Shown piece by piece: positions 1-13,357 of a DNA stretch of 13,369 bases. The stretch's first letter is position 1. The number at the start of each line of letters is the position of its first letter. Location of the stretch: the NCBI GenBank assembly GCA_030590585.1, contig JAUUYD010000019.1:1-13369 (forward strand). The letters are read 5' to 3'. The position numbers and the translations under genes were made by a program. The notes beneath the pieces are model-generated. The model did not search any database, had not been told where the DNA came from, and saw only the letters and a list, made by a program, of their open reading frames with translations. Source of the DNA: Spirochaeta sp. (GTDB lineage Bacteria > Spirochaetota > Spirochaetia > Spirochaetales_E > Spirochaetaceae_B).

Positions 1-959
1 ATGGTGAGACTCAATGTTTTCCCGGCCGGTTTGAGCGCGAGCGCACGGTACCCCAGGTCGATTCTTTCCTGCAAGTCCGAGATATCATGAAGTGATTCGT
101 CGGCTGCGACACGAACAGGGATTCTGTCCACTGCAATTTTTTTCTCGTAGGCAAACGGTTCTTCAAGGATGATAATCCCGGACAGCATGTCCAACTTTTC
201 GGCTGCATCCAAAAGCCGCATCAAGGTCTCAAGATCCGGATACCTGCCGTTGGCGTCCAGATAATAGTGGATCAGACCCTCTTCATGTTCCAGCGAATGA
301 TGCAGTTCCTCGAGGCGGCGAATGTCCTTTCCCAGCATTTCCGATGCCGATCCGTTTTGTCCCAATTTGACCTTGAGAATGCGGTGTCCCTGCCGCACGA
401 GTGTCACGACTTCGACAACGGGAACGTTATACGAAATAAGAGGAACTCTTGCCAGAGTATCGGCCCTGTCGGCGAATGCGTGCCGCATTGATTCAGGTAC
501 CAGGTTAAAGAAACTTTCAGTGCCCTGATCCCGGGCATGGGCTTTCCACAGGGCCAGATCCAATGCCACCATTGCGTTGAGAGCAAAGGTTGGTGTGACA
601 TCAGGACGTCCCGTTATTCGTCTGGCGTATTCGTGAACTTCAGACCGGATGGATTCAAACGCTTCAATCGGGTCGGTAAAAGATGATTCTCCGGCGATTT
701 GAACCGCCCGCTCGGCGAGCAGGGACATGAGGGAATTTCCACCGTACTCCGACCAGTCCCGGAAAACCGCCGGATCCGACCATAGAACCGCATTACCGCC
801 GAGGCCTGTGACTGTTTGTCCATCACTGCCTTCACCACCTTCAAGAGATAAGCTGACAACATTGATCCACTTCTCGGTAAAAAAACCACCTTTGAAATGG
901 AACGGCCTCACCAGGGGCTGACGCTCCACGGCGAATCGGTAATCGGTGAACCGGAGCAC
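1..959 (-). CDS. Enolase-superfamily enzyme (mandelate racemase/muconate lactonizing type), 3' end beyond window
   Basis: This is the 5' part (319 complete codons) of an enolase-superfamily enzyme; the C-terminus lies off the left edge. The N-terminal capping domain is about residues 1-130 (it includes RPFHFKGG at 18-25 and ALDLALW at 132-138). The TIM barrel then shows the full active-site series: K196-V-K198, D235-A-N237, E266-E267-P, A286-D287-E288-S and K310. K-x-K plus a lysine on the later strand is the muconate-lactonizing/dipeptide-epimerase/racemase arrangement: Mg2+-assisted proton abstraction alpha to a carboxylate, giving epimerisation, cycloisomerisation or dehydration. The true substrate cannot be read from this. 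I chose the GTG at 959 because AGGA lies six bases upstream and the protein then begins in the usual family style. The frame is open from the stop of the preceding hydrolase gene, three bases away, so the two are surely co-transcribed. The family is secure; the specific reaction is not. Confidence 0.9.
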   Translation of the reverse strand, partial: MLRFTDYRFAVERQPLVRPFHFKGGFFTEKWINVVSLSLEGGEGSDGQTVTGLGGNAVLWSDPAVFRDWSEYGGNSLMSLLAERAVQIAGESSFTDPIEAFESIRSEVHEYARRITGRPDVTPTFALNAMVALDLALWKAHARDQGTESFFNLVPESMRHAFADRADTLARVPLISYNVPVVEVVTLVRQGHRILKVKLGQNGSASEMLGKDIRRLEELHHSLEHEEGLIHYYLDANGRYPDLETLMRLLDAAEKLDMLSGIIILEEPFAYEKKIAVDRIPVRVAADESLHDISDLQERIDLGYRALALKPAGKTLSLT

Positions 960-962
960 AAT

Positions 963-2462
963 CTATCCTACCCAGACCGGACTGGACCAGGCGTACTGGC
1001 CGTTATGCAGACGCACCCTGACATAGTAAAAGTCAGGACCGTCTTCTATCGGACGTTTGTCGGTCCAGCGGATACTGCAGCGTGATTCTCCGGGAAAGAC
1101 AAGCCTGTGAATCTGAATGCTTTCACTCGTAAAGACTCCGGTAAATGTAACGTCGTTCCGGCTCTCAAGATCGGCCAGGGCAATACGCCGGGACAGAACC
1201 GTCGGTTGGCGAAAGGATATCTCCAGTCGTGCATCCCGTCCGGCTTCGATGTCGAGTACCAGTCCTTTGGTCGGATCCTGAAGATAGGCCTGACGCCGTG
1301 ATGTAAATGAATGGAGATCAATCTGCCGCTCCGATACCTGACGCGCAGAATCTTTGATTTTCTCACCGAAGGGTCCCGACTGGAAGCAGCGTTCGAAGCC
1401 CCGGATTCGGCCTCCTTCGATGCTGATACTCATGTCCCATTCGCAGACACGTTCCAGATCCAGGGCCGACCAGGGGCCCCAGCCGTATTGGATCCGGCAT
1501 TTGACGTTTCCGGGCAGCTGTTCCTGCTGAACGATTTCATCATGCGGGAAATGACGGTGTATGGTTTTATCTCCGCGAATCAACTCAACCGATTCAATCG
1601 AATCAGGCGAATCCACCTCGATTTCAAATATCCGCTCTTCACAAGCTGGGATTTCGGTTCCCATAGGTTCTCCGTTGACATGAAAAACAAGATGAATCCT
1701 GTCTCCGGTGATGGCCACGGTCCGCCTTGCCCTCAAGGCTTCAAAAATCGAAGACGGGTCGAGGGATTCGGCCCATATGCCGGTTAGCCCTTCACCGTAT
1801 GCACCGGGATAACCAAAGTGGTCGTCGGTGGAAGCAACAAAGCCGAAACGGCGGCCGGCTCTGAGCTGATACCGGGAAGTCTGGCTTGAAACACGCCCCC
1901 CGTTACTGTGGAGAAGGGCCGGGTACGGTGAGCTGTCTGAGAGTGTACATCCCTGCTCGGAGAATATTTCGACCACCGGAGTTACTGAAGGCCGAAAATG
2001 ATTCCAATTCGCACCCCGCCACCCCTCCTTGTAGGCAACATGATGAGGAATCGCCAACGCACCTTTTTCCTCTGCGAAATCAAATAATGCCTCGACATTA
2101 TCGGGAAGGAAGAGCTCCTCCTGATCTTCCTGAAAAATCAGGCATTGATCGCCATAGCGGCTTGAATGCCATTCGTACCCGAGGAATGCCAGGAAATCAT
2201 CGTCATTGGCTTCGGATATCATCTTTCGCGTTTTAGACCAGTGCTCTGAATGGACCTTGAAGCCGTTCACCCAGTGCATGTGCTGGTTCTTCGGCATTAA
2301 AGGCATGTCATGCCACGATGCATGGCCGGTAAACGCAAAGAAATCCAGATGCTCACGAGCCAGATCCACAGACCGGGCGAGGGAACCTTTGGCATATCCA
2401 ACCGCATTGTGATTGTGGAGGTCTCCCCAGAAAAGCTGATAGCGATCGGTAAATTTTTTCAT
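963..2462 (-). CDS. PHP-like metal-dependent hydrolase (DUF3604 type), copy A
   Basis: A 499-residue protein with no signal peptide, so probably cytoplasmic. The first half (about 10-225) has the PHP/amidohydrolase-like metal site: D14-L-H16-N-H18, H47, E97-W-H99, H140-H141, E165 with S168-E169, and D213-D214-H215 followed by FGYPG. The second half (about 255-499) appears beta-rich and ends in a signature near 477-498 (FYYVRV, NGQ, AWSSPVWV). That layout fits the DUF3604 family, related to PHP phosphoesterases. The reaction is uncharacterised; metal-assisted hydrolysis of a phosphate, amide or ester bond is a family-level expectation only. ATG at 2462 is preceded by AAGGA at good spacing, 26 bases after the oxidoreductase stop. 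It is a diverged paralogue of the gene at 4379-5863, sharing every metal-site motif. The next gene downstream starts three bases after its stop. Confidence 0.85.
   Translation of the reverse strand: MKKFTDRYQLFWGDLHNHNAVGYAKGSLARSVDLAREHLDFFAFTGHASWHDMPLMPKNQHMHWVNGFKVHSEHWSKTRKMISEANDDDFLAFLGYEWHSSRYGDQCLIFQEDQEELFLPDNVEALFDFAEEKGALAIPHHVAYKEGWRGANWNHFRPSVTPVVEIFSEQGCTLSDSSPYPALLHSNGGRVSSQTSRYQLRAGRRFGFVASTDDHFGYPGAYGEGLTGIWAESLDPSSIFEALRARRTVAITGDRIHLVFHVNGEPMGTEIPACEERIFEIEVDSPDSIESVELIRGDKTIHRHFPHDEIVQQEQLPGNVKCRIQYGWGPWSALDLERVCEWDMSISIEGGRIRGFERCFQSGPFGEKIKDSARQVSERQIDLHSFTSRRQAYLQDPTKGLVLDIEAGRDARLEISFRQPTVLSRRIALADLESRNDVTFTGVFTSESIQIHRLVFPGESRCSIRWTDKRPIEDGPDFYYVRVRLHNGQYAWSSPVWVG
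966..970 (-). promoter_or_regulatory. Ribosome binding site that sets the GTG start at 959
   Basis: TAGGA on the minus strand, six bases before the GTG, inside the last codons of the upstream hydrolase gene. No ATG occurs near the expected N-terminus, so this site decides the start. Confidence 0.6.
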
Positions 2463-2488
2463 GGTTCTTCCTTACAAACTCCTAAGGT

Positions 2489-3532
2489 TCACAAACGGCA
2501 GGGGCTGCCGCTTCGGGCCGACTCGTATATTCCGGTAATCAATTGAATGGCCTTTCGCCCTTCACGGCCCTGCAGCAGAGGGGGGCGTCCCTGATTAATC
2601 GCATCCACCATATCCTGGAACTGCCTTCTATGGCCTTCGAAACCGGCGGCCCTGGGATCACCGGCTCCCCCGGCCAAGCCCTCGGACTTGCTTCCTTTTT
2701 CCCGGATACCAGCATCCTCGGGACGCTCATCGGTGAATTGCCAGCGTACGATCCGGTCGTCTTCCAATATGATGCTTCCATTCTGCCCTGAGAGTTCAAG
2801 CTTCCGGGGGAATCCCGGTGCACAGGAAGTACTCGCTTCGATAACCCCGAAACCTCCCGAGACAAACCTCAGGCTCGCACCGGCCGTATCCTCGACTTCC
2901 AGGCCGGGGTGGGTAAGAGTGCCTATATATGCACTGACTTCCTCCACATCCCCGGCCAGATAGAGAAGCAGATCAATGATGTGTATTGACTGGTTCATGA
3001 GGGCCCCGCCGCCATCCAGCGCCCAGGTACCCCGCCAGCCCGCAGCGGCGTAATATTCCGGTGTCCGATACCAGCGAACCTGAGCACTGGCCAGTATCAT
3101 CCGACCGAATCGGCCTTCATCCAGCGCGTTGCGAATCAACTGGACATTGCTGCCGAATCGAGCCTGGAATACCGCGGCCAGCCGGACTCCCGCGTCTTCA
3201 CAGGCTTTTATGATGAGGTCGGTTCTTTCCAGGCTTGTCTCCAACGGTTTTTCGCAGATGATATGCTTCCCCGCCATGGCGGCTGGAACCGCCACATCCG
3301 CGTGAGCGCCACTGGGAGTCGCGATGGTGACAATATCGACATCCTGTCTGGTGAGAAGTTCTTCCAGTGTCGGAGCTGCCAAAACTCTGTGCTTCCCGGC
3401 AAAGTTACGGCACCGATCCGGATCCGCATCGTAAACAGCTATTAATGATGCGCCATGAAGAGCCCGGATGGCCTTGACATGTCTCTCGGCTACCATCCCC
3501 GTGCCGATGATGGCGATTCCGAGTTCAGACAC
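2489..3532 (-). CDS. Gfo/Idh/MocA family NAD(P)-dependent oxidoreductase, copy A
   Basis: A 347-residue sugar or cyclitol dehydrogenase-like protein. The N-terminal Rossmann fold carries the dinucleotide-binding glycine motif (IIGTGMVAERH, 8-18), and the family EKP motif is at 94-96 (catalytic lysine K95). The C-terminal alpha/beta domain has WRGTW (166-170), GGGALMNQ (174-181) and H184-x-x-D187, the usual active-site segment that aligns substrate hydroxyls. Members oxidise a ring or chain hydroxyl to a ketone, or the reverse, with NAD(P). It starts at GTG 3532 and overlaps the end of the TIM-barrel gene by 8 bases, so translation is probably coupled; GGAG lies about 12 bases upstream, rather far. 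It aligns end to end without gaps to the 347-residue protein at 10248-11291. Pairing with an isomerase-fold enzyme recalls inositol (IolG/IolE) and 3-keto-glycoside chemistry, but the substrate is unknown. Confidence 0.93.
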   Translation of the reverse strand: MSELGIAIIGTGMVAERHVKAIRALHGASLIAVYDADPDRCRNFAGKHRVLAAPTLEELLTRQDVDIVTIATPSGAHADVAVPAAMAGKHIICEKPLETSLERTDLIIKACEDAGVRLAAVFQARFGSNVQLIRNALDEGRFGRMILASAQVRWYRTPEYYAAAGWRGTWALDGGGALMNQSIHIIDLLLYLAGDVEEVSAYIGTLTHPGLEVEDTAGASLRFVSGGFGVIEASTSCAPGFPRKLELSGQNGSIILEDDRIVRWQFTDERPEDAGIREKGSKSEGLAGGAGDPRAAGFEGHRRQFQDMVDAINQGRPPLLQGREGRKAIQLITGIYESARSGSPCRL

Positions 3533-4382
3533 GGGAACGGATTTCTCCTACCATGGCCGTGAATATTCGGCCGTACTTCAAATACGATTCATACATCTGC
3601 CGAGGCGAACTGACTCCGCCGGATTTGTGAACGACAGCGGCAACGTGGGGCTCAATGGAAATAACACCATCATATCCGTCTTCAAGAATGATTGTTTCAA
3701 GATATTCGCGGATATTCGCATCCCCTTCACCGCAGAAAGTATAGTCGTCCGACGGTCCCCCGCCGTCCTTTCGCCTGACGTCTTTGATATGAAGATACGC
3801 GAACTCATTTCTGATCCCCTGAAAGAAGATTTCGGGATCCAGTCCGTGGCTCAGAGTATTACCAATGTCATACAGAAGGGCAAAGGACGGGCTTCCCACG
3901 GCATCCCGCATCTCAAGCATGTTCTCCACGCTCAGTCCTCCCCAGCCGTAGCAATTCTCATGGCAGAGCAGTACATCTCCATCTTCCGCGATTTTCGCCA
4001 ATTCCTTCATTCGGCGTATCGCCTCATCCCTCCACTTGCGATTTTCAACACCTTCGCCTTTCCAGCTCATGACTCGAATGGGTCTGACACCCAGCCTCTT
4101 CATCCGTGGAATTGAGGCCTTGAGGTCATTTACATCCAGTGAGAAATCATCATTGATATGACGGCTCCAATTGGCGATTCGTGATGCAAAACCGGTAACA
4201 GTCAGCCCTTCGCGGTCAAGAACGCTGCATATTTTATCAAACTCCGTATCGCTCACTTCACCGGCGATATTTTTTCCGTCAACAAGACGCAATTCAATGT
4301 GGTTCCATCCCAGTTCCTTGTGGGCTTTAACCTGATTGTCAATGTCGACAGCTGCTTCATCCGCTATGCCGGTTAATATCAT
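3525..4382 (-). CDS. Sugar phosphate isomerase/epimerase family TIM-barrel protein (xylose isomerase-like)
   Basis: A 285-residue single-domain TIM barrel of the xylose-isomerase-like/AP-endonuclease-2 superfamily, which includes IolE, IolI, hydroxypyruvate isomerase and tagatose epimerases. The metal-site residues are visible in order: E30 (HIELR), H141-E142-N143, D172 (YDIGN), H179, H198 (YLHIKD), E219 and E244 (ISIEPH). Members use a divalent metal for ketose epimerisation, isomerisation or dehydration next to a carbonyl. ATG at 4382 overlaps the TGA of the upstream hydrolase gene as ATGA, with GGAG seven bases before it, so both the start and coupling are well supported. Its stop overlaps the oxidoreductase start by 8 bases. 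That tight pairing suggests it acts on the keto product of that dehydrogenase (inference). I cannot tell isomerase, epimerase, dehydratase or keto-glycoside lyase apart from sequence alone. Confidence 0.9.
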   Translation of the reverse strand: MILTGIADEAAVDIDNQVKAHKELGWNHIELRLVDGKNIAGEVSDTEFDKICSVLDREGLTVTGFASRIANWSRHINDDFSLDVNDLKASIPRMKRLGVRPIRVMSWKGEGVENRKWRDEAIRRMKELAKIAEDGDVLLCHENCYGWGGLSVENMLEMRDAVGSPSFALLYDIGNTLSHGLDPEIFFQGIRNEFAYLHIKDVRRKDGGGPSDDYTFCGEGDANIREYLETIILEDGYDGVISIEPHVAAVVHKSGGVSSPRQMYESYLKYGRIFTAMVGEIRSRV

Positions 4383-5863
4383 ATCGTTTCTCCATTAACC
4401 CAGATGGGCGAGCACCAGGCCATCTGGCCGTTTTCCTGCTCAACCTTCAAGATGTAGAAATCCCCATGCACAGCTCCTTCATCGATCGTGCGAAATTCCA
4501 TAGTTCGTTCTCCCCTTGGAATGAGGGCATGTACCTTCAGTTTCGGTGAAGAAAATAAATCAAACGCAGAAAGGTAACTGTCCTGTTCGCGAAGCTCACC
4601 CTTGCCGACCCTGAGACTGCGTGAGAACGGGGAGTCTCCGTTTCTTCCGGTGACATCGATTGTAAGAGTGGAAGAATCCGGGCCTTTCCAGTCAAAGCTG
4701 AGGGAACTCACCGGTAATATGTTCTTCCTCGAAGTGTATGAAGATATGCGGAAAACATCTTCTTCTTCACTATGAAGAAGATTCACTTCGGAAACAGAAC
4801 CGACACCGCCACAAAAAGCCGGAACGATGTCGGTAATTGCCGATCGTTCCGCATGAACGCGAATGTCCCAGGTGGTGACAAGTTCGGATGAAAGCAGGTC
4901 CCAGCCCCATTCGATACGGACCAGATGCTCATCGATATCCGAATCACCGGTCCACGATTCAGGACCGAATCGTTTCCAGTGCCGGCCGTTTTTAAGCAGC
5001 TCAGCTGAACGGATACGGTCCCGGCCGGATATTTCGGCACTGAGCGACACCCCTTCGGCACAACTCACAACATCTCCCGGAATTCCGTCATTGACCCGGA
5101 AATCAACTTCTATCCTGTCGCCGGTAACGGCATAGGTATGCCTGGCTCGCAAAGCCGCCATTATTCCGGAACGGGAAAGCTCATCGCTAAGTACAGCCGT
5201 AAGTCCCTGATTATAGGCTCCGGGATAACCGAAATGATTATCACTCGAAGCCAGAAATCCGAAACGCAGGCCTTTACGAAGCTGTGCAAGACCCGATTGG
5301 GATTGATCGATTCCCCCCATGGAATGATTGTACATACCCCATGGTGAACTTGGTTCAAGTGAGTTCCCGTGTTCGGAAAATATCTCCACTACAGGGGACA
5401 GAAGGGGATCAAGAGATTTCCAGTCCAGACCGCGCCAGCCAAGACGATATCCTGGATGATGGGGAATCAGGATCGCCCCCCTGCTGCGGGCCAGTTCTTT
5501 CAGTTTATCGAGGGAGGAGGCCTCACTGAGCTCCGCCTGATCGCCTGGAAAATAGATACAATAATCTCCCCACTTCAGTGAATGCCATTCCCATCCCGCA
5601 AAAACAACGAAGCGCCCGGTGCTGTTCTGCTCTTCAACAAATCGACGCACCTCTTCCCACCGGGCTTTCACCTTCGCGAAACCTTTTTCGTGATGTCGGC
5701 GTATCACTTCGTCGTCCCTGGGTACATCGGTCCACCATCCGTGAGGCGTAAACGCGTAGAAATCAAGACTGTTTTCGGCTATTCGGAAAGAGCGATCCAG
5801 GGATCCTTCGGCATAACCGATTTCATTGTGATTATGGATATCCCCCCAGTAAATCTGTTTCAT
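4379..5863 (-). CDS. PHP-like metal-dependent hydrolase (DUF3604 type), copy B
   Basis: A 494-residue cytoplasmic protein, paralogous to the product of 963-2462. The metal-site motifs recur at matching positions: D8-I-H10-N-H12, H41, E92-W-H94, H135-H136, E160, S163-E164-H165 and S207-D208-N209-H210 followed by FGYPG. Copy A has D-D-H where this copy has D-N-H, and the segment after FTPH41 also differs, so the two may act on different bonds or substrates. The C-terminal half is again beta-rich and ends with the shared FY...NGQxAWxSPxWV pattern (469-489). ATG at 5863 overlaps the tctA stop as ATGA, and its own stop overlaps the next start the same way. Translation is therefore tightly coupled to the transporter on one side and the isomerase-fold gene on the other, which argues for a role in the first intracellular steps. 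The catalytic reaction is unknown. Confidence 0.85.
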   Translation of the reverse strand: MKQIYWGDIHNHNEIGYAEGSLDRSFRIAENSLDFYAFTPHGWWTDVPRDDEVIRRHHEKGFAKVKARWEEVRRFVEEQNSTGRFVVFAGWEWHSLKWGDYCIYFPGDQAELSEASSLDKLKELARSRGAILIPHHPGYRLGWRGLDWKSLDPLLSPVVEIFSEHGNSLEPSSPWGMYNHSMGGIDQSQSGLAQLRKGLRFGFLASSDNHFGYPGAYNQGLTAVLSDELSRSGIMAALRARHTYAVTGDRIEVDFRVNDGIPGDVVSCAEGVSLSAEISGRDRIRSAELLKNGRHWKRFGPESWTGDSDIDEHLVRIEWGWDLLSSELVTTWDIRVHAERSAITDIVPAFCGGVGSVSEVNLLHSEEEDVFRISSYTSRKNILPVSSLSFDWKGPDSSTLTIDVTGRNGDSPFSRSLRVGKGELREQDSYLSAFDLFSSPKLKVHALIPRGERTMEFRTIDEGAVHGDFYILKVEQENGQMAWCSPIWVNGETI

Positions 5864-7359
5864 TTACCAACCTTTCTTCGTTTCTGAAATACGGTAGACC
5901 ATACAATGAAGAACAGGGTCAGCAGTACAAACAACAGGGATATCGGACGTGTGAACAGTGGAAGGATGGAACCGTCTCCCAGTATCATCAATTGAACGAG
6001 GCTGGTTTCCATTAGCGGCCCCAGTATGAATCCCATCATGAGGGGCGGTATCGGAAAACTCAGCTTCTTCATGATGTAACCGATAACACCGAAAAGAATC
6101 ATGATGTAGACATCAAAAAGATTACTGTTGGTTGTATAGGCCCCAGCCATGCAGATTACCAGTACAATGGGAAAAAGGTAGGCCTTGCTCATCGACAGAA
6201 GACGGGTAAAAAGCTTAACGCCCAGTCGAGCGATGAAGAAATGAAATATATTCGCCACAATGAGTCCGATAAAAACAGCATAGACAATTGTGGCGGACTT
6301 CTCGAAAAGCTCAGGTCCGGGTACCAGTCCGTGCACAAGGAAAGCTCCCAGCATGATGGCGGTAATCGGGTCGCCTGGAATCCCAAGTGTGAGCAAGGGA
6401 ATAAGAGCGCCTCCTGTAACCGCGTTGTTTCCCGTCTCAGCCGCGAATACACCGGTGAGAGAACCTTTGCCGAACTCTTCGGGATTTTTGGAAGCACTCT
6501 TGGCGGCACCATAGGAAACAAAGGCTGAAATGGACGAACCGCTTCCCGGCAATGCCCCAATTCCTATCCCTATCAAGGTGGATCTGATAATAGTCTTGAA
6601 ATTCGATCGAAATTCCTGCCAGGTTACCCGGTCGTCATCTGGATTCTTCGGCGGAGGAACAACGACATCCATTTCCCCCTTTTTGATACGCTTTTCAATC
6701 TGGATGAGAAACTCCGATATTGCGAACAATCCGATCAGATGCGGGAGAAAGGGTATACCGCCTATCAGTTTGAAAATTCCGAATGTGAAACGTGCCGATC
6801 CGAAGATGGGATCGGCTCCGATCATCCTAAAAAAAATGCCGAAGAATATCGCAATCAGACCTTTAATCTTGAAATTACTGGAAACCATGGCGATTGTTGT
6901 CAAAGCGAAAATCACAAGCGCAAATTTTTCATGAGGTCCGAATTTCAAGGCAATCCGCGCAATCTGTGCTGCGAGGGTAATCAGAACGATGTCACTGATG
7001 AATTCTCCGATTACAGAACCGTAGATTGATGCCTTTAATGCCTTCCCGGCTTTACCCTGCTGTGCTAGTGGGTATCCGTCAAGACAGGTCACGGCAGCGG
7101 CGGGTGCGCCCGGGGTATTTATCAGAACCGCTGAGATGGAACCTCCGTAGGTTCCGCCTTTATAGACTCCCATCAGAAGAGTAAGCCCGGCTACCGGCTG
7201 CATGTAGAAGGTAATCGGCAGTAACAGAGCTATCGTCATCGGTACATTCAACCCGGGTATCGCACCGATTGTTATCCCGATAAAAAGTCCGATAACAACA
7301 ACCAGGAGATTTTGTATTGTAAAAAATAATTCAATTGACGGCCAGATAAATTCCAACAT
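5860..7359 (-). CDS. tctA: Tripartite tricarboxylate transporter large membrane subunit TctA
   Basis: A 499-residue, very hydrophobic inner-membrane protein covering the full TctA length. It has two repeat halves, each with a conserved PG-containing motif: GAIPGLN (32-38) followed by GGSISAVLINTPG (72-84) and DGYPLAQQGKAGKAL (94-108); then GALPGSGSSISAF (268-280) followed by EEFGKGS (294-300), ETGNNAVTGGALIP (308-321) and LTLGIPGDP (323-331). These are the family hallmarks. TctA is the channel-forming subunit of a secondary, ion-gradient-driven, binding-protein-dependent importer of carboxylates and other anionic small molecules. It lies 42 bases after tctB with ATG at 7359, and its stop overlaps the following hydrolase start by 4 bases. 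The solute carried cannot be deduced from TctA. Confidence 0.96.
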   Translation of the reverse strand: MLEFIWPSIELFFTIQNLLVVVIGLFIGITIGAIPGLNVPMTIALLLPITFYMQPVAGLTLLMGVYKGGTYGGSISAVLINTPGAPAAAVTCLDGYPLAQQGKAGKALKASIYGSVIGEFISDIVLITLAAQIARIALKFGPHEKFALVIFALTTIAMVSSNFKIKGLIAIFFGIFFRMIGADPIFGSARFTFGIFKLIGGIPFLPHLIGLFAISEFLIQIEKRIKKGEMDVVVPPPKNPDDDRVTWQEFRSNFKTIIRSTLIGIGIGALPGSGSSISAFVSYGAAKSASKNPEEFGKGSLTGVFAAETGNNAVTGGALIPLLTLGIPGDPITAIMLGAFLVHGLVPGPELFEKSATIVYAVFIGLIVANIFHFFIARLGVKLFTRLLSMSKAYLFPIVLVICMAGAYTTNSNLFDVYIMILFGVIGYIMKKLSFPIPPLMMGFILGPLMETSLVQLMILGDGSILPLFTRPISLLFVLLTLFFIVWSTVFQKRRKVGK

Positions 7360-7401
7360 GTTGCTTTGAGCCTCGTTTATTCAGGATTGTGCCGGGGGCT
7401 G

Positions 7402-7869
7402 TCAGTATAGGAAGCCATGAGGCAGGGGTATACGGAATATTTTCTCGAAAAAAAGCCAGACAGCGACAGGGATCATCACAATGACAATCGCAATCTTCCA
7501 CCAGCTGCGTGCACCGAAGAAGATTGTAAAAAAACCGACGAACACCGCACTCGTCACCACGAACCCCAATATCGGGAACAGTGTTGTGTATGCAAGCATC
7601 AGCAGGACCGTAATCAGAATACGTATGGATGTGGTTTTATCCAAATCGATACGGCTGGACTTTGGTCCGCCCAACGCGGATTGCAGGACAAGAGCAAGGC
7701 CCAGAATGATGAGACCCACCCCGACAAAGGCCGGAATGAATCTCGGTGACATCTCAGTCTGCATTCCCGGCATTAACCTCACCTGAGAGGAAACCAGGAA
7801 CAGAACAGAGGAGCCGATCAAAGCGACGGCTCCCCCTTCTGCGACGCTTCGCTGCGTGGGTCTATACAC
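7402..7869 (-). CDS. tctB: Tripartite tricarboxylate transporter small membrane subunit TctB
   Basis: A 155-residue membrane protein with about four to five hydrophobic segments (around 13-29, 44-64, 82-119 as one or two passes, and 122-141) and a C-terminus IFRIPLPHG (144-152) typical of TctB. It associates with TctA in the inner membrane; TctB is poorly conserved, so length, topology and position between tctC and tctA carry much of the call. The start is GTG at 7869, whose G is shared with the tctC stop (TAGTG). No good ribosome binding site is near: GGAG is about 16 bases away. It is probably made by ribosomes re-initiating after tctC. No better start is apparent downstream before the first membrane segment. 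Confidence 0.92.
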   Translation of the reverse strand: MYRPTQRSVAEGGAVALIGSSVLFLVSSQVRLMPGMQTEMSPRFIPAFVGVGLIILGLALVLQSALGGPKSSRIDLDKTTSIRILITVLLMLAYTTLFPILGFVVTSAVFVGFFTIFFGARSWWKIAIVIVMIPVAVWLFFEKIFRIPLPHGFLY

Positions 7870-8858
7870 TATTTAAGGCCCATTTTCTCCACGATAGCCG
7901 TATAGCCGTCTATATCATTCTGCCAGACAGCTCTGAACTCCTCAGCGGATTTCGGACTGATGCTTTCACCGATTCGTTTCATAACTTTCAGAAAGTCTTC
8001 ATCAACAATAACTTTGTCAAAAGCATCACGTAATGTTGCTAGTACATCATCGGAAAGTCCCTTGGGAGCCGCAATTCCGGTGAAAGGACTGGCAACTACA
8101 TCGTATCCCGATTCGACTGCAGTCGGAGTATCGGGAAGATTCCCGTCTCTTTCTTCGGCAAATACCATAAGGGCTACAAGACTGCCCGAATTCACATGGG
8201 AGACAATTGTCGCAACACTGGATGTCATGGCTATATCCACATGCCCGCCAAGTGTGGATGCAACAGCTTCAGCATCGTTCCCGACAGGAACATGTTTAAA
8301 TTCAAGACCCGCCGCATCGGCCCATCTCAGGAATCCCAGTTGAGGAGCTTTTAAGGCGACACATCCATAAGTGACTTTTCCGGGATTCGCCTTCGCATAG
8401 GCAATGAGACCCTCGACATCATCCCATGGGCTATCGGGATTAGACGCAATGGCCATCGTGCTGCTGCCGATCTGACCGATCGGTTCGAAATCGAAGGTAT
8501 CGTATGGAGCCGATCCGAAAACAACTGGAAACACGTTTGTTCCGGGAGTAATTGCAAGCAGGGTATAGCCGTCCGGTTCCGCATTCGCCACGAAATCACC
8601 GCCGATCACACTGCCGCCGCCGGCCATATTGATAACCATAACCGGTTGTCCCAGGTACTTGGGCGCGACACTGGCGAACATCCTCGCGTTGATATCCGTC
8701 CGTCCTCCAGCTCCCCATGGAACAATGATCTGTATAGGCTGCGAGGGGTATGGCTCCATTTCTACAGCGGCCTCACTCTCTCCGTCATTAGCCCCACCAG
8801 TAAAGGCCGGGAAAGCCACCAATAGCAGAACCGTAAGACAAATCAGCATCCTCTTCAT
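7869..8858 (-). CDS. tctC: Tripartite tricarboxylate transporter substrate-binding protein TctC (Bug family)
   Basis: A 329-residue periplasmic binding protein of the Bug/TctC family. Residues 1 to about 20 form an export signal (positively charged MKR, hydrophobic LICLTVLLLVAF, cleavage near AFTGG); there is no lipobox cysteine, so it should be soluble. Mature-domain hallmarks are PIQIIVPWGAGGRTDINAR (41-59), the NMAGGGSVIGG loop (77-87) and AEPDGYTLL (93-101), which form the ligand cleft of this family. I place the start at ATG 8858, not at the in-frame ATG 8906: the later start has AGGAG seven bases upstream and puts the signal peptide at the N-terminus, while the earlier one would add 16 basic residues and overlap the promoter. 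It is the first gene of the operon. The ligand is probably anionic, by family, but is not defined. Confidence 0.94.
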   Translation of the reverse strand: MKRMLICLTVLLLVAFPAFTGGANDGESEAAVEMEPYPSQPIQIIVPWGAGGRTDINARMFASVAPKYLGQPVMVINMAGGGSVIGGDFVANAEPDGYTLLAITPGTNVFPVVFGSAPYDTFDFEPIGQIGSSTMAIASNPDSPWDDVEGLIAYAKANPGKVTYGCVALKAPQLGFLRWADAAGLEFKHVPVGNDAEAVASTLGGHVDIAMTSSVATIVSHVNSGSLVALMVFAEERDGNLPDTPTAVESGYDVVASPFTGIAAPKGLSDDVLATLRDAFDKVIVDEDFLKVMKRIGESISPKSAEEFRAVWQNDIDGYTAIVEKMGLK

Positions 8859-8896: not shown

Positions 8897-8925
8897 ATCC
8901 TAACATGACATCAACCAGCTGTCAA
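8897..8925 (-). promoter_or_regulatory. Sigma70-type promoter of the tctC operon
   Basis: On the minus strand a perfect -35 TTGACA (8925-8920) is followed, after exactly 17 bases, by the -10 TAGGAT (8902-8897), which matches four of six consensus positions. Transcription would begin near 8890, giving a leader of about 30 bases before tctC. It is the only strong promoter match I found in the divergent region in this direction, and it would drive the whole 8.8-kb operon. Confidence 0.65.
8906..8924. repeat. Inverted repeat TGACA-N9-TGTCA inside the tctC promoter
   Basis: Five-base arms TGACA (8906-8910) and TGTCA (8920-8924) flank nine bases. They lie between the -10 and -35 of the tctC promoter and overlap the -35. 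A protein bound here would compete with RNA polymerase, so it is a possible operator. The arms are short, so chance occurrence is quite possible. Confidence 0.35.
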
Positions 8926-8962
8926 TTTTTATCTTCATATACAGAAATTACATGAGAGTTAT

Positions 8963-9018
8963 TTCACATATATATCTTTTTATTTTCTGTTATAGAAAAT
9001 AACTGGACTAAATGTGAA
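8963..9018. repeat. Outer dyad TTCACAT...ATGTGAA surrounding the palindrome
   Basis: TTCACAT (8963-8969) and ATGTGAA (9012-9018) are exact reverse complements. Their centre at 8990.5 is almost the centre (8991) of the 9+9 palindrome, so the two inverted repeats are nested. This could reflect binding of a larger oligomer or two adjacent dimers. Confidence 0.4.
8980..9002. promoter_or_regulatory. Candidate ROK-repressor operator: perfect 9+9 bp palindrome
   Basis: Arms TTATTTTCT (8980-8988) and AGAAAATAA (8994-9002) are exact reverse complements around five bases. The form, TTATTT near one end and AAATAA near the other at about 23 bp, is like known operators of ROK repressors such as NagC and Mlc in E. 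coli. It sits 50 bases before the ROK regulator start and about 55 bases upstream of the -35 of the divergent tctC promoter. Binding could autoregulate the regulator and affect the operon. A copy of one half-site, TTATTTC, lies 21 bases (two helical turns) to the left at 8959. Confidence 0.6.
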
Positions 9019-9051: not shown

Positions 9052-10227
9052 ATGGAAAACCGCGATGGAAAACTCCTGTCTCTATTATTCAAACACGGTC
9101 CTCTATCCAATCAGGAGTTGGCAAATGCAATGCATATTTCACCGAGTACCGTAAGCTCTGCCGCAGTGAGATTACTCAAACTCGGGGCCATTAATAAAAT
9201 CGATGCCCGCCATTTCAACAGTCGAATCCAGATCGGCCAGCGAAAAAAGAGATCTTATTGCCTGAACCCTGAATATGGATTTGCCATTGTAGTTGAGATT
9301 GATTATGACGGCCTTATCATCCATATAACTAATTTTGATCTGTCAATCTCCAGTACCAGGCGTGTACCGATCACTCAGAATAAAAGAGACAGAATCCTGA
9401 GCATAATAGAAAAAGAACTCCATTTATTACTCTCAGAACACAAAGCAAACAGACTGCTGGGCATCGGGTTCAGCATGCCGGGACAGGTGGACGCTCAATC
9501 CCGGAAGGCCCTTCATAACACACGAATTAACGGCTGGGAAAACGTCAACTTCGATCAGTTTAAATCGTTCTCAGAAAACATCATTACAGAGAATGTGGCC
9601 AACGCATTGACTATTGGTGAAAACCTTCGCGGATCGGCTCAGGGTGTAGATGATTTTATCCTTCTTCATGTGGGTAATGGTGCCGGCATGGGAATAATGA
9701 TCGCCGGTAAGCTCCATCATGGGCATAATTATGCCGCCGGAGAAGCCGGACATGTTATCGTTGACGAAAACAGCGGTACCAGCTGCAACTGCGGTAATCG
9801 CGGATGTCTGGAATCTTTTGTCTCCCGGCGAGCCGTGATGAAGGAACTCGAACGGCTCCGAAAAAATGAAGTACCTTCCGGGATTCTAACCAACCCCGCA
9901 TTGAGCGATGGATCTGAGGTTTATCGATTACTTGGTGAATACTATGAATCGGGCGATAAGGTAGCCTACCTCGTCGTTGCGGAACTGGCTCACAAACTGG
10001 GACTCGCCGCCGCCAACTTTGCTCAGGTGCTTGATCCGGCCCGCATCGTTCTTTCAGGCCCGATATGCAATCTCGGCACACAATTCCTCAATCTCGTTCA
10101 GCAGACAATTAAAAGATATCATTTGCCCTGGCTGGACCAGGTACCGGTAGTTTTTGGTCAGAACGAGAACACAGCAACAGCTCAGGGAGTGGCTTTTCTC
10201 ATTTTTCAGAAAATTTGGAAGGGATAA
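9052..10227 (+). CDS. ROK-family transcriptional regulator (NagC/XylR/Mlc-like)
   Basis: A 391-residue protein. An N-terminal winged helix-turn-helix (about 16-48, with LSNQELANAMHISPSTVSSA) is followed by a ROK domain. Visible ROK features are GIGFSMPGQVD (137-147), GNGAGMGIMIAGK (208-220), GEAGH (230-234) and the zinc cluster C245-N-C247-G-x-x-G-C252-L-E, with H234 as the likely fourth ligand. Kinase residues are lost: the usual ENDAN is E180-N181-V182-A183-N184, so the catalytic aspartate is valine, and the N-terminal phosphate loop DxGGT is replaced by EIDYDG. It should therefore sense a sugar or sugar derivative without phosphorylating it, normally releasing DNA when bound. It diverges from the tctC operon across 193 bp containing a ROK-type palindrome, making it the likely local regulator. 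Only a weak ribosome site (GGTG) precedes ATG 9052. It converges on the next gene with 20 bases between. Confidence 0.93.
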   Translation: MENRDGKLLSLLFKHGPLSNQELANAMHISPSTVSSAAVRLLKLGAINKIDARHFNSRIQIGQRKKRSYCLNPEYGFAIVVEIDYDGLIIHITNFDLSISSTRRVPITQNKRDRILSIIEKELHLLLSEHKANRLLGIGFSMPGQVDAQSRKALHNTRINGWENVNFDQFKSFSENIITENVANALTIGENLRGSAQGVDDFILLHVGNGAGMGIMIAGKLHHGHNYAAGEAGHVIVDENSGTSCNCGNRGCLESFVSRRAVMKELERLRKNEVPSGILTNPALSDGSEVYRLLGEYYESGDKVAYLVVAELAHKLGLAAANFAQVLDPARIVLSGPICNLGTQFLNLVQQTIKRYHLPWLDQVPVVFGQNENTATAQGVAFLIFQKIWKG

Positions 10228-10247: not shown

Positions 10248-11291
10248 TCAGGGTTTAGTTCTTAATCCCGATTCAGCACTCCGGTAAATCGCCGTAATCA
10301 CCGCAACTGATTTCCGGGCTTCAATACCGTTTATAAACGGCTCCCGGTCTTCGCTCAGGGCTTGAACAAAATCGGCAAGCTGCCTGCGGTGCCCTTCAAA
10401 GCCGATTGCGCTTGGATCCCCGGCCCCGCCGCTGCCGGTTTCCCCGGTCTCAATACTCTTGAGTATCGAATCATCTTCAGGATGGGGTTTCTGAAATTCC
10501 CATCGGGTTACCCGGTTGTCCTCCAGAACAACGCTGCCCTCAGTGCCGCTGATTTCTATTCTCTTGGCCCACCCGGGCCAGGAGGCTGTGGCGGCGGTGA
10601 TTGTTCCCAATGCTCCGGATTCATGGAGAACCGTTGCTGTGATAACATCCTCAACCTCCAGATCCTTATGACCCAGAGTAGCGGTATAGGCGCTGACTTC
10701 AAAAATTCCTCCGGAAAACCACTGGAGCAGATCCACGGCATGGATAGCCTGGTTCATGAGGGCTCCGCCGCCGTCCATTGCCCAGGTGCCCCGCCATCCG
10801 GCCTGGGCGTAATACTCGTCACTGCGGTGCCATTTCACAGCAGCATCCAGAATGGTAAGCCGACCGAATCGGCCCTTATCAATAGCGCTTTTTATCTGAA
10901 GAGCACCATCTGAAAAGCGGCTGGGGAAAATCCCTGTAAGACGGACTTTATTGTCCCGGGCCGCGGTGATAATCCGATCGCATCGTTCTGTTGTAATTTC
11001 CAGAGGTTTTTCGATGACTAGATGTTTACCCGCAGCGGCGGCAGCCAGGGCCGGTTCCAGATGCAGACCCGAGGGAGTGCAGATGATAACGGCATCAACC
11101 GACTTGTCCGCCAGGAGGTCATCCAGAGACTCCATGGAATTACAAGCGAACTCCTCGGAAAATGCCTCCGAACGTTCCGGGGACAGATCGAAACATGCCG
11201 CCAGCCGGGCACCGGGAATCTCCGCCAATGCCTTGGCATGGAACGATGCAATCATCCCGACACCAACAACACCAAAACCTGTTTCCACCAT
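10248..11291 (-). CDS. Gfo/Idh/MocA family NAD(P)-dependent oxidoreductase, copy B
   Basis: A 347-residue paralogue of the product of 2489-3532, identical in length and alignable without a gap; by eye close to half the residues match. It has the Rossmann motif VVGVGMIASFH (8-18), EKP at 94-96 (K95), WRGTW (166-170), GGGALMNQ (174-181) and H184-x-x-D187. Keeping this whole segment suggests the same class of substrate, with differences elsewhere perhaps setting specificity. It begins five bases after the tctA stop of the second transporter; AAAGGAG, inside the tctA end, lies about ten bases before ATG 11291 (GTG at 11288 is an alternative). It is the last gene of this unit as seen, and its 3' end faces the regulator gene. 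NAD(P)-dependent sugar or cyclitol oxidation is expected from the family; the substrate is unknown. Confidence 0.93.
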   Translation of the reverse strand: MVETGFGVVGVGMIASFHAKALAEIPGARLAACFDLSPERSEAFSEEFACNSMESLDDLLADKSVDAVIICTPSGLHLEPALAAAAAGKHLVIEKPLEITTERCDRIITAARDNKVRLTGIFPSRFSDGALQIKSAIDKGRFGRLTILDAAVKWHRSDEYYAQAGWRGTWAMDGGGALMNQAIHAVDLLQWFSGGIFEVSAYTATLGHKDLEVEDVITATVLHESGALGTITAATASWPGWAKRIEISGTEGSVVLEDNRVTRWEFQKPHPEDDSILKSIETGETGSGGAGDPSAIGFEGHRRQLADFVQALSEDREPFINGIEARKSVAVITAIYRSAESGLRTKP

Positions 11292-11296
11292 AAGAA

Positions 11297-12829
11297 TCAG
11301 GCTCCTTTCTTCCGCTTAAACGGTGCAGCAATCATGTTTTTCAACATCGTCATAAGGTTTTGAAACCACTTCATCTTACTCAGGATAACCAGGAGTGTGA
11401 TGAGAAAAAGCACCAGGCCTATGGGCTGGTTGAAGAACGGCGCCAGGTGGCCGTCGGAAAGAATAAGACTGCGCCTGAGATTCTTGTCCAGTATATCCCC
11501 GAGAATGATACCCAGGATGAGGGGAGCCATGGGATAGTCCATTTCTCTGAGGAAGTAACCGACGATTCCAAAAAACACCATAACACCGATGTCGAAAGTC
11601 CTGCTCTGAATGGCGAAGGCTCCAACAACACAAAGAACAAAAATGATGGGCATGAGTTTTTCCCGAGGTACAGCTAATACTTTTACCAGCCACTTCACCA
11701 TGGAAAGACCCAGAACCAGCATGGCGGCAGATGCGAGAAGAACCATGACAACAATTTCGTAAACGAATGAAGGGAATTCTATCATAATGAGGGGTCCCGG
11801 GCGGACACCATGGATAAACATCGCCGCCAGGAGTACCGCTGCCGGAGCTGAACCGGGGATGGCCAGGGTGAGAACGGGAATCATGGCCCCGGCAACACAG
11901 GCATTGTTCCCGGCCTCCGCGGCTATCAGGCCCTCGATTGAGCCCTTACCGAATTCCTCAGGGTGTTTACTGGACCTCTTGGCCATGTCGTAGGACACCC
12001 AGGCAGCGATATCTTCACCAACACCGGGTATGGCGCCGATAAATGTGCCGACAATACCTGAACGGATGATGGTCCATTTGTTACACCAGATTTCAACAAA
12101 CTTGGGAATGACCCGTTCAATTTTGGTATCAACAACTTCATAGGCCGACCGCTTCATTACCGTGATAATCTCGGCAAATCCAAAGGCACCCACCATGGCG
12201 GGAAGCAAGGCAATTCCGCCGGAAAGCCCCGTACCGGGTTTGGCGAAACGGATGAAGGCAAAAGAACTTTCCATTCCAATCATGGCGATAAACAGACCCA
12301 GGAACCCGGCTATCCACCCTTTGAGAGGGTCTTTGGGAGCTGTCAGATTACCACTGATAACAATGCCGAAGATGGCCAGCCAGAAGAACTCATAAGATTT
12401 GAACTCCAGAGCAAACTTACCGATGAGGGGCGTGAAAAGAGCCAGAATAATCATCCCGATAAAAGTACCGATAAACGATCCCGTGGTGGCAATACCAATG
12501 GCCCGGCCGGCACGGCCCTGTTTAGCCAGAGGATAACCATCAACCGCGGTGGCTGCATTGGCCGGAGTTCCGGGGATGTTTAGTAGAATTGCACTTCGGC
12601 TTCCGCCGTATATGGCTCCAACATACATACAAATCAGGATGAGTATGGCTTCCGAGGCCGGCATCTGAAAGGTAAGTGTGGTTAGCAGGGCAACACCCAT
12701 TGTAGCTGTCAAACCGGGAAGCATCCCCACAATAATGCCGAGTTCCGTGGCCAGGAGCACATAAATCAGTATCTTGAATTGCATGAATCCAAGAAAAGAT
12801 TGTCCGAACATTTGCAATCCTTCCAGCAT
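11297..12829 (-). CDS. tctA: Tripartite tricarboxylate transporter large membrane subunit TctA, second system
   Basis: A 510-residue TctA with both repeat halves: GMLPGLTATMGVALL (35-49), YGGSRSAILLNIPGTPA (74-90) and DGYPLAKQGRAGRA (97-110); then GAIPGVGEDIAAWVSYDMAKRSS (265-287), EEFGKGS (291-297), EAGNNACVAGAMIP (305-318) and LTLAIPG (320-326). The variant GVGEDIAAW, where the first system has GSGSSISAF, and many changes between motifs show that the two transporters are old paralogues or separately acquired, not a recent duplication. ATG 12829 has AGGAGG eight bases upstream, overlapping the tctB stop; a second possible start, ATG 12811, has AAGGA six bases upstream. It works in the inner membrane with the TctB encoded just before it. 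A binding-protein partner is not present in the window. Confidence 0.95.
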   Translation of the reverse strand: MLEGLQMFGQSFLGFMQFKILIYVLLATELGIIVGMLPGLTATMGVALLTTLTFQMPASEAILILICMYVGAIYGGSRSAILLNIPGTPANAATAVDGYPLAKQGRAGRAIGIATTGSFIGTFIGMIILALFTPLIGKFALEFKSYEFFWLAIFGIVISGNLTAPKDPLKGWIAGFLGLFIAMIGMESSFAFIRFAKPGTGLSGGIALLPAMVGAFGFAEIITVMKRSAYEVVDTKIERVIPKFVEIWCNKWTIIRSGIVGTFIGAIPGVGEDIAAWVSYDMAKRSSKHPEEFGKGSIEGLIAAEAGNNACVAGAMIPVLTLAIPGSAPAAVLLAAMFIHGVRPGPLIMIEFPSFVYEIVVMVLLASAAMLVLGLSMVKWLVKVLAVPREKLMPIIFVLCVVGAFAIQSRTFDIGVMVFFGIVGYFLREMDYPMAPLILGIILGDILDKNLRRSLILSDGHLAPFFNQPIGLVLFLITLLVILSKMKWFQNLMTMLKNMIAAPFKRKKGA

Positions 12830-12837
12830 GAAAAAGC

Positions 12838-12843
12838 CCTCCT
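12838..12843 (-). promoter_or_regulatory. Ribosome binding site of the second tctA
   Basis: AGGAGG on the minus strand, eight bases before ATG 12829 and overlapping the tctB stop TAG. It favours this start over the in-frame ATG at 12811. Confidence 0.65.
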
Positions 12844-13357
12844 AAGGCAGACTGACGAGAAATAGATAACGGAACACAACCCATATGGAGACACCGCTGA
12901 TAACAGAAGTGAGCGTTGCTTTGTAAAGCATACGTTTCTCTTCTCTTAGGGGGACGCCTTTTTCGTGCTCGAATACCACAATAAATGCAAAAATAAACAG
13001 AACTGTACCCAACGCATACGGCAGCCAACCGATAAATACAAGGGCGTAAATCAGGCTCAAACCCAGAGTTATCAAGAGCCGCAGGGTAGAGTCGTCCTTT
13101 ACCCATTCCTTAATGGTTCGGCCGGTTATGCCGAGCTTGTATCCTTTTCGAATCAAGGAACGTATCAGCAGAACAATTCCCATAAAGGCAATGATGCCGC
13201 CGAGGAAACCAGGTACAACACCGGGAACCGAATATGGATTGGCATCCTGTTCTTCAAAACGCGGCATTCCGATTGAGACAAAAAGAATGGTGATTCCAAA
13301 AACGATCAACAGGATGGACATCAGGAAATCGGCTTTGGACATGTTTGATTCTTTCAT
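12842..13357 (-). CDS. tctB: Tripartite tricarboxylate transporter small membrane subunit TctB, second system
   Basis: A 171-residue membrane protein with hydrophobic segments near 11-30, 48-68, 91-111, 112-130 and 145-166. The PGVVPGFLGGIIAFMGIVLL stretch (45-64) matches the usual TctB second segment. The C-terminus (FRYLFLVSLP) lacks the LPHG ending seen in the other TctB. ATG 13357 is preceded by GAGG at five bases; an in-frame ATG at 13342 has no comparable site. It lies 12 bases before tctA, so the two are co-transcribed. The sequence ends 12 bases upstream of the start, so the expected tctC-like gene or the promoter would lie beyond the right edge. Confidence 0.9.
   Translation of the reverse strand: MKESNMSKADFLMSILLIVFGITILFVSIGMPRFEEQDANPYSVPGVVPGFLGGIIAFMGIVLLIRSLIRKGYKLGITGRTIKEWVKDDSTLRLLITLGLSLIYALVFIGWLPYALGTVLFIFAFIVVFEHEKGVPLREEKRMLYKATLTSVISGVSIWVVFRYLFLVSLP

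What the first reader, a model, noticed from the sequence alone, without database searches (positions are those of the whole stretch)
1..8858. Unrecognised catabolic operon: TctABC importer with two DUF3604/PHP-like hydrolases, isomerase-fold enzyme, dehydrogenase and enolase-superfamily enzyme
Eight genes in one direction with overlaps of 1, 4 or 8 bases or gaps of at most 42 bases behave as one operon behind one strong promoter. Each protein family is recognisable, but I know of no described pathway combining two DUF3604-type hydrolases with Gfo/Idh/MocA, xylose-isomerase-like and MR/MLE enzymes under a ROK regulator. The set could process an anionic sugar derivative: oxidise, isomerise or eliminate, hydrolyse, then act alpha to a carboxylate.
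Basis: partly seen in the sequence, partly recalled or inferred. Interest (0 to 1): 0.7.

Follow-up and report, generated by a model that had tools for sequence, protein, structure and literature searches.

The report
Spirochaete operon for sulfated acid uptake
An uncultured spirochaete carries a gene cluster that imports one particular acidic molecule, probably sulfate-bearing, and breaks it down with enzymes of families whose reactions in this combination are not known.

Summary
The eight-gene operon is real, with overlaps and gaps as described; the last gene runs off the window. Relatives show two modules. Core: tctCBA, the second DUF3604 gene (DUF2) and the MR/MLE gene. Second module: the first DUF3604 gene (DUF1), TIM-barrel and Gfo/Idh/MocA genes, seen in 3 of 14 genomes. 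A partner outside the window is a CxPxR sulfatase, within 120 bases of DUF2 in 11 of 11 other spirochaetal loci and convergent just past MR/MLE in the nearest relative. TctC orthologues share one pocket with an arginine absent from the 19 paralogues examined. The DUF1 model has a PHP metallohydrolase fold; MR/MLE keeps the KxK...K residues of the muconate-lactonising subgroup. Best reading: import of one multiply anionic acid, probably a sulfated sugar acid, then desulfation, PHP hydrolysis, alpha-proton chemistry and, here, sugar oxidation with isomerisation or elimination. Substrate and order are inferred. Rivals: phosphate or phosphonate ester, unsulfated sugar acid, betaine-like acid. My library searches found no gene-for-gene match. 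New variant of a known kind.

The parts
7869..8858 (-). TctC, TTT solute-binding protein; pocket signature VPWGAGGRTD with Arg at the position that is Gly in 25HK
   Evidence: PF03401 170 bits; Arg in 11 of 11 orthologues, 0 of 19 paralogues examined
7402..7869 (-). TctB, small TTT membrane subunit
   Evidence: PF07331 79 bits
5860..7359 (-). TctA, large TTT membrane subunit
   Evidence: PF01970 509 bits; 63-77% identical to TctA linked to DUF2 in other spirochaetes, 38-40% to two paralogues
4379..5863 (-). DUF1: DUF3604 protein, PHP metallohydrolase domain (about 2-250) plus beta-sandwich C-terminal part
3525..4382 (-). TIM: xylose-isomerase-like TIM barrel protein, metal type
   Evidence: PF01261 96.7 bits; E142 D172 H198 E244 invariant in 33 of 33
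2489..3532 (-). GFO: Gfo/Idh/MocA dehydrogenase closest to 3q2k/3q2i among solved proteins
963..2462 (-). DUF2: second DUF3604 protein, core module; PHP-like by homology to DUF1
   Evidence: PF12228 24.6 bits; 36% identical to DUF1 and sharing its invariant residues; within 120 bases of a sulfatase gene in 11 of 11 other spirochaetal loci
3..959 (-). MR/MLE enolase-superfamily enzyme, cut by the window end; KxK ... K subgroup
   Evidence: PF13378 39.5 bits; K193 K195 D232 E264 D284 K307 (L110 numbering) invariant in 11 of 11
8897..8925 (-). candidate promoter of the operon
   Evidence: TTGACA-17-TAGGAT, 10 of 12 matches with TG before the second hexamer; not above shuffles; TTGACA and 17-base spacer recur before tctC in L003, L001, L037 (read)
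8980..9002 (.). candidate operator: TTATTTTCT-N5-AGAAAATAA, 9-bp perfect arms
   Evidence: an AT-rich palindrome also stands before tctC in L001, but the nearest relative L003 and L037 do not keep this one; not tested for chance
9052..10227 (+). divergent ROK-family repressor
   Evidence: ROK 142 bits + winged HTH; ROK genes 85%, 44% and 42% identical beside tctC in L003, L001 and L037

Best explanation
A ROK-controlled operon that imports one specific multiply anionic small molecule through a TTT transporter (TctC captures, TctAB carries it in) and catabolises it in the cytosol. The substrate is most likely a sulfated organic acid, probably a sulfated sugar acid. Core steps, as inferred: a formylglycine-type cytosolic sulfatase (outside the window) removes sulfate; DUF2, a PHP-type metallohydrolase, cuts an ester, amide or similar bond; the MR/MLE enzyme, with a KxK lysine pair and an opposite lysine, abstracts the proton alpha to a carboxylate (epimerisation, beta-elimination or cycloisomerisation). 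This lineage adds a second module: DUF1 (a second PHP hydrolase), GFO (NAD-dependent sugar-hydroxyl oxidation, probably at C3 as in relatives) and TIM (isomerisation or beta-elimination of the keto sugar), comparable to the LgdA/LgdB1 chemistry on levoglucosan. Shown here: families, conserved catalytic residues, predicted fold of DUF1 and of an MR/MLE homologue, gene linkage, one shared TctC pocket. Inferred: sulfate, substrate class, cytosolic location of the sulfatase, reactions and their order.
For: Nearest relative G001: the same genes at 85-96% identity on three contigs that break inside DUF1 and DUF2, with MR/MLE followed by a convergent sulfatase (L110). A sulfatase gene (in L019 a fragment) lies within 120 bases of DUF2 in 11 of 11 other spirochaetal DUF2 loci. 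Density near DUF3604 genes in spirochaetal loci 0.244 per kb (11 in 45 kb) against 0.016 elsewhere in them (2 in 124 kb). CQPAR/CQPCR motifs in 9 of these 11, CVPTR in L110; the frames that start cleanly show no signal peptide by eye. Anaerobic sulfatase maturase (TIGR03942) above cut-off in 9 of 13 genomes; control genomes 2 of 14. MR/MLE in 8 of 26 genomes of one order, DUF2 in all 8. TctC: Arg in the pocket in 11 of 11 orthologues (11 genomes), 0 of 19 paralogues examined (30 of 52 TctC hits looked at). 28 of 120 listed DUF1 homologues share a contig length with a TIM homologue, control mean 0.58, maximum 4. TTT proteins can carry uronate oligosaccharides (PMC13390454, passages and section 8 read).
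Against: No sulfatase is in the window, so its presence in this very organism is unproven. In the nearest relative it is convergent, not in the operon, and only 43.5% identical to the one in L001. That fragmented genome has no maturase hit. Outside spirochaetes sulfatases are hardly denser near DUF3604 genes (0.038 against 0.027 per kb), and several DUF3604 relatives in spirochaetes have no sulfatase beside them (L094, L097, L114, L117). In two genomes core genes have broken frames: DUF2 and MR/MLE in G007, MR/MLE in G012. The Arg may bind a carboxylate or phosphate instead. NagB-like and MttB-like neighbours in some relatives hint at other chemistry. No enzyme of the operon reaches a curated cut-off for a named reaction. 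Of 4 non-spirochaetal genomes with MR/MLE among 32 searched, only one has DUF2 beside it.
Confidence: 0.5

Rival explanations
1. The substrate is a phosphodiester or phosphonate ester: the sulfatase-superfamily enzyme is a phosphodiesterase or phosphonate monoester hydrolase, and the two PHP proteins are phosphatases acting in sequence.
Against: The L001 sulfatase scores highest against choline-sulfatases (184 bits); entries named phosphonate monoester hydrolase score about 97-102 bits. NCBIfam gives the same ranking for it: arylsulfatase 270, PehA 158 bits.
Confidence: 0.2
2. The substrate is a quaternary-ammonium or N-acyl amino acid (betaine-like): MR/MLE is a racemase or epimerase of it, DUF2 an amidase, the sulfatase a choline-sulfatase relative.
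Against: That cluster was seen in these three loci only and not in the window. Muconate cycloisomerases and other subgroup members tie in the fold search. GFO and TIM fit sugars better (general knowledge of the families). Choline-sulfatase cut-off not reached (246, 242 and 237 against 433 bits).
Confidence: 0.13
3. An unsulfated sugar acid (uronate, aldonate or anhydro-sugar acid) is the substrate; the sulfatase is a neighbour that acts on other molecules.
For: No sulfatase inside the window operon; convergent in the nearest relative. The closest solved TctC binds unsulfated alginate oligosaccharides. The second TTT operon has a related GFO and, in the relative, TIM genes, with no sulfatase hit in the 14.6 kb read.
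Against: Sulfatase gene beside DUF2 in 11 of 11 other spirochaetal loci, including divergent and rearranged layouts. Arg replaces Gly in the pocket.
Confidence: 0.14
4. The genes are a chance assembly without a joint function.
For: Distribution is patchy: DUF2 at E<=1e-30 in 8 of 392 genomes of the phylum, DUF1 at E<=1e-80 in 2 of 288 of another.
Against: Linkage kept across rearrangements at about 60% identity; contig sharing 28 of 120 against 0.58 expected.
Confidence: 0.03

Closest known systems
TTT-dependent alginate utilisation locus of Vibrio sp. C42 (PMC13390454)
   Same: TTT importer whose SBP (25HK) is the top solved match of this TctC by sequence (147 bits; 2dvz 145), feeding cytosolic sugar-acid catabolism
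   Different: Pocket residues differ (25HK Gly24, Phe19, Pro104, Gly183, Thr225, Arg227 are Arg, Trp, Thr, Ala, Pro, Thr here); none of that locus's lyases or KdgF/DehR/KdgK/Eda enzymes is among the families found in this window
Levoglucosan pathway LgdA/LgdB1/LgdB2/LgdC (PMC7676230, passages read)
   Same: Sugar 3-dehydrogenase plus sugar-phosphate-isomerase-like proteins in one locus; oxidation then beta-elimination
   Different: GFO scores 107 bits against a cut-off of 650 for levoglucosan dehydrogenase; one TIM gene, not two; TTT transporter, PHP hydrolases and MR/MLE have no counterpart among the four Lgd enzymes
Choline sulfate catabolism (cytosolic choline-sulfatase; pathway recalled)
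   Same: Import of an organosulfate followed by a cytosolic sulfatase; choline-sulfatases are the top solved match of the linked sulfatase
   Different: Sulfatases below the choline-sulfatase cut-off; transporter and following enzymes differ
CehA/McbA carbamate hydrolases
   Same: Remote sequence similarity to DUF1 over residues 6-306 (58 bits)
   Different: Below the family cut-off of 80; DUF2 has no hit
WlbA-type UDP-sugar 3-dehydrogenases (3q2k, 3q2i; the name is recalled; WlbA papers seen only as references in PMC10622841)
   Same: Best solved relatives of GFO, nearly full length (205 bits)
   Different: Those are biosynthetic enzymes on UDP-sugars (recalled); no UDP-sugar gene is among the families found in the window

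Membership tests
Tripartite tricarboxylate transporter (TTT) | TctA, TctB and TctC subunits together, each above Pfam cut-off | tested here: met
   509, 79 and 170 bits
Pfam DUF3604 (PF12228) | score above gathering threshold 20.4 | tested here: met
   DUF1 36.5, DUF2 24.6 bits, best stretch only about 40 residues
PHP metallohydrolase fold | PHP fold with conserved His/Asp/Glu metal ligands | tested here: met
CehA/McbA family metallohydrolase (NF038032) | score above cut-off 80 | tested here: not met
   DUF1 58.3, DUF2 no hit
Enolase superfamily, muconate-lactonising subgroup | KxK on one side, three metal carboxylates, lysine on the other side (definition recalled) | tested here: met
Named MR/MLE reactions (DgcA, o-succinylbenzoate synthase) | curated equivalog cut-off | tested here: not met
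   full-length relative 19-28 bits against 130-400
Type I sulfatase, Cys subtype (gene outside the window) | PF00884 and CxPxR | tested here: met
   145 and 158 bits in L110 and L001; motif in 9 of 11 linked sulfatases plus L110, 2 not readable: an overlong frame and a fragment
Type I sulfatase, Cys subtype (gene outside the window) | a maturase in the genome | tested here: inconclusive
   TIGR03942 above cut-off in 9 of 13 genomes, none in G001; aerobic-type FGE not searched
Choline-sulfatase (TIGR03417) | cut-off 433 | tested here: not met
   246, 242 and 237 bits for L110, L001 and L013
Levoglucosan dehydrogenase / myo-inositol pathway | equivalog cut-offs for GFO and TIM | tested here: not met
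   107 of 650; iolG 152 of 355; iolE 20 of 290
Organosulfate importer | TctC binds a sulfated ligand | not testable with these tools
   only a conserved pocket Arg is shown

The most novel reading that the evidence does not exclude
This TctC clade (VPWGAGGRTD) is an organosulfate-specific TTT importer, and the operon is a new pathway for a sulfated sugar acid in which the DUF3604/PHP proteins carry out a previously undescribed cytosolic hydrolysis coupled to a new MR/MLE reaction. That would give a first function to this branch of DUF3604.
Probability: 0.33. Interest if true: 0.72.

Novelty: new variant of a known kind. Interest (0 to 1): 0.5.

Why it matters
Organosulfates are a large part of marine organic matter, yet few importers for small sulfated acids are known (general knowledge, not searched). 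The recurrent sulfatase partner and a one-residue pocket signature turn an anonymous operon into a testable substrate prediction. It could also give a function to DUF3604 enzymes; the word DUF3604 occurs in 1 paper of the 5.39 million in the library.

Tried and rejected
Rejected: 'one indivisible eight-gene pathway'. A TIM of 60% identity or more is in 3 of 14 genomes (G001, G002, G003), where it stands with DUF1 and GFO; the core runs without them in the others. In those, TIM homologues of 35-47% sit elsewhere; of the five stretches read, three (L141, L142, L145) have one shared unrelated neighbour.

Dropped or limited counts: one search kept the best 80 of 273 stretches (79 loci). In one search the two loci of the nearest relative (L003, L004) end before any sulfatase could show, and G695 (L126) has DUF2 at a contig start, so these are not in the 11. 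L019's linked sulfatase is a 175-aa fragment. In one search I looked at 30 of 52 TctC hits (those with loci); genomes G007 and G011 were not. In one search two of 11 linked sulfatases gave no motif. Contig sharing rests on equal longest-contig lengths of the 120 listed hits of each search. DUF1 against MR/MLE gave 6 of 120 with a control mean of 0.9 and maximum of 5, hardly above chance. Signal peptides and the acetyltransferase-like or twin-arginine-like look of some neighbours were judged by eye.

Full report
What is there. The window holds eight - strand genes from 8858 to its first base: tctC, tctB, tctA, a DUF3604 gene (DUF1), a xylose-isomerase-like gene (TIM), a Gfo/Idh/MocA gene (GFO), a second DUF3604 gene (DUF2) and an MR/MLE gene. 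The MR/MLE gene is cut: 319 codons here against 424 in the nearest relative. A ROK gene diverges at 9052. Beyond it lies a second TTT operon (GFO2, TctA2, TctB2), whose GFO2 is 48% identical to GFO.

Source. No whole genome is held for the window. The closest genome found is a Spirochaeta sp. MAG (G001; loci L003, L004, L110), with proteins 85-96% identical. The window is therefore from a spirochaete, by inference. In G001 the genes lie on three contigs that break inside DUF1 and DUF2, so their joint order there is inferred from the halves.

Conservation. A scan of one genome each for 84,980 species with a DUF3604 alignment found 273 relatives and kept 79 loci. Gene order shows a core in Spirochaetales: sulfatase, DUF2, MR/MLE and TctCBA. 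In 11 spirochaetal DUF2 loci other than G001, a sulfatase gene lies within 120 bases of DUF2 in all 11 (in L019 it is a fragment). MR/MLE follows in 10 of 11; the L037 contig ends, and its genome has an MR/MLE piece elsewhere. TctC is in the same locus in 9 of 11. L019's stretch has none, and in L030's genome orthologues of TctC and TctA are in another operon. L001 is a rearranged version: MR/MLE-DUF2-sulfatase-ROK diverging from TctCBA-DUF1-TIM-GFO. L002 (Victivallaceae) has DUF1, another gene, TIM, GFO and MR/MLE. In the nearest relative the gene after MR/MLE is a convergent sulfatase (L110:1469-2941). Within one order, 8 of 26 genomes hold MR/MLE and all 8 hold DUF2. In two of them frames are broken: DUF2 and MR/MLE in G007, MR/MLE in G012. 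In the phylum sample DUF2-like genes are rare (8 of 392 at E<=1e-30). Of the 120 DUF1 homologues listed from a 5.8-billion-protein set, 28 share a contig length with a listed TIM homologue (control mean 0.58, maximum 4).

The sulfatase. PF00884 scores 145 and 158 bits in L110 and L001; both are closest to arylsulfatase and choline-sulfatase models, yet below their cut-offs. Nine of 11 linked sulfatases show CQPAR or CQPCR, L110 shows CVPTR. The frames that begin cleanly have no evident signal peptide by eye, so the enzyme should be cytosolic. Maturase TIGR03942 is above cut-off in 9 of 13 genomes (2 of 14 control genomes), but no hit was found in G001. Density is 0.244 per kb near DUF3604 genes against 0.016 elsewhere in spirochaetal loci; for other phyla 0.038 against 0.027. 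So the coupling is shown for spirochaetes only. Single further pairs occur in distant DUF3604 branches (L113, L115, L121), while others (L094, L097, L114, L117) have no sulfatase beside them.

The importer. TctC orthologues are 63-94% identical and TctA 63-96%; the paralogues met here 27-31% and 38-40%. Best solved matches are 25HK (147 bits) and 2dvz (145). 25HK is the alginate-oligosaccharide SBP of Vibrio sp. C42 (PMC13390454; passages and section 8 read). At the eleven positions that paper lists, the window and ten orthologues agree apart from single changes in L016 and L032. They carry Arg where 25HK has Gly and, by the paper, BugD and MatC have Pro. Among 30 of the 52 TctC proteins of 11 genomes, the 11 orthologues all have Arg and the 19 paralogues have Ala, Gly, Ser or Gln. 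So one ligand with an extra negative charge is likely. That it is sulfate is inference from the neighbouring sulfatase.

Reading. I put 0.5 on import and stepwise breakdown of a sulfated organic acid, most likely a sugar acid; 0.2 on a phosphate or phosphonate ester; 0.14 on an unsulfated sugar acid; 0.13 on a betaine-like acid. That this is a real, conserved TTT-fed catabolic system I hold at about 0.9. Evidence against is kept in view: no sulfatase inside the window, no maturase found in the nearest genome, no clear coupling above background outside spirochaetes, broken frames in two genomes, and hints of amino-sugar (NagB-like) or methylamine (MttB-like) neighbours in some relatives.

Noticed in passing
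window 10248-13357: A second TTT operon (GFO2, TctA2, TctB2). In the nearest relative it continues with TctC2 and two divergent TIM-barrel genes, one weakly like 5-keto-L-gluconate epimerase (76 bits of 300), and no ROK gene adjoins it there (L144).
   Followed up: partly
L110:3343-12691: Another gene run in the nearest relative: ROK, sugar ABC transporter, two GFO genes, a third DUF3604 gene and a second sulfatase-like gene. A GFO-type, DUF3604, sulfatase run is also in L096.
   Followed up: partly
L176:4764-12252: In genome G008 the Arg-type TctC and a TctA sit with a DHO_dh/PreA-like gene, a GFO, a glucosamine-6-phosphate-isomerase-like gene and a ROK regulator, on another contig than the sulfatase-DUF2-MR/MLE genes.
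   Followed up: partly
L016:10436-11815, L030:91-1554, L045:4448-5830: One cluster of proteins recurs near the core in three genomes; the L016 and L045 members were scanned and are MttB-like methyltransferases.
   Followed up: no
L021, L022, L025, L028, L050, L056: Planctomycete and acidobacterial DUF3604 proteins lie near sulfatase genes; those read have a twin-arginine-like N-terminus by eye (L021, L022, L025, L050, L056), suggesting an exported version.
   Followed up: partly
window 8926-9001: Two imperfect copies of a 25-base AT-rich element between the ROK gene and tctC, 51 bases apart.
   Followed up: no
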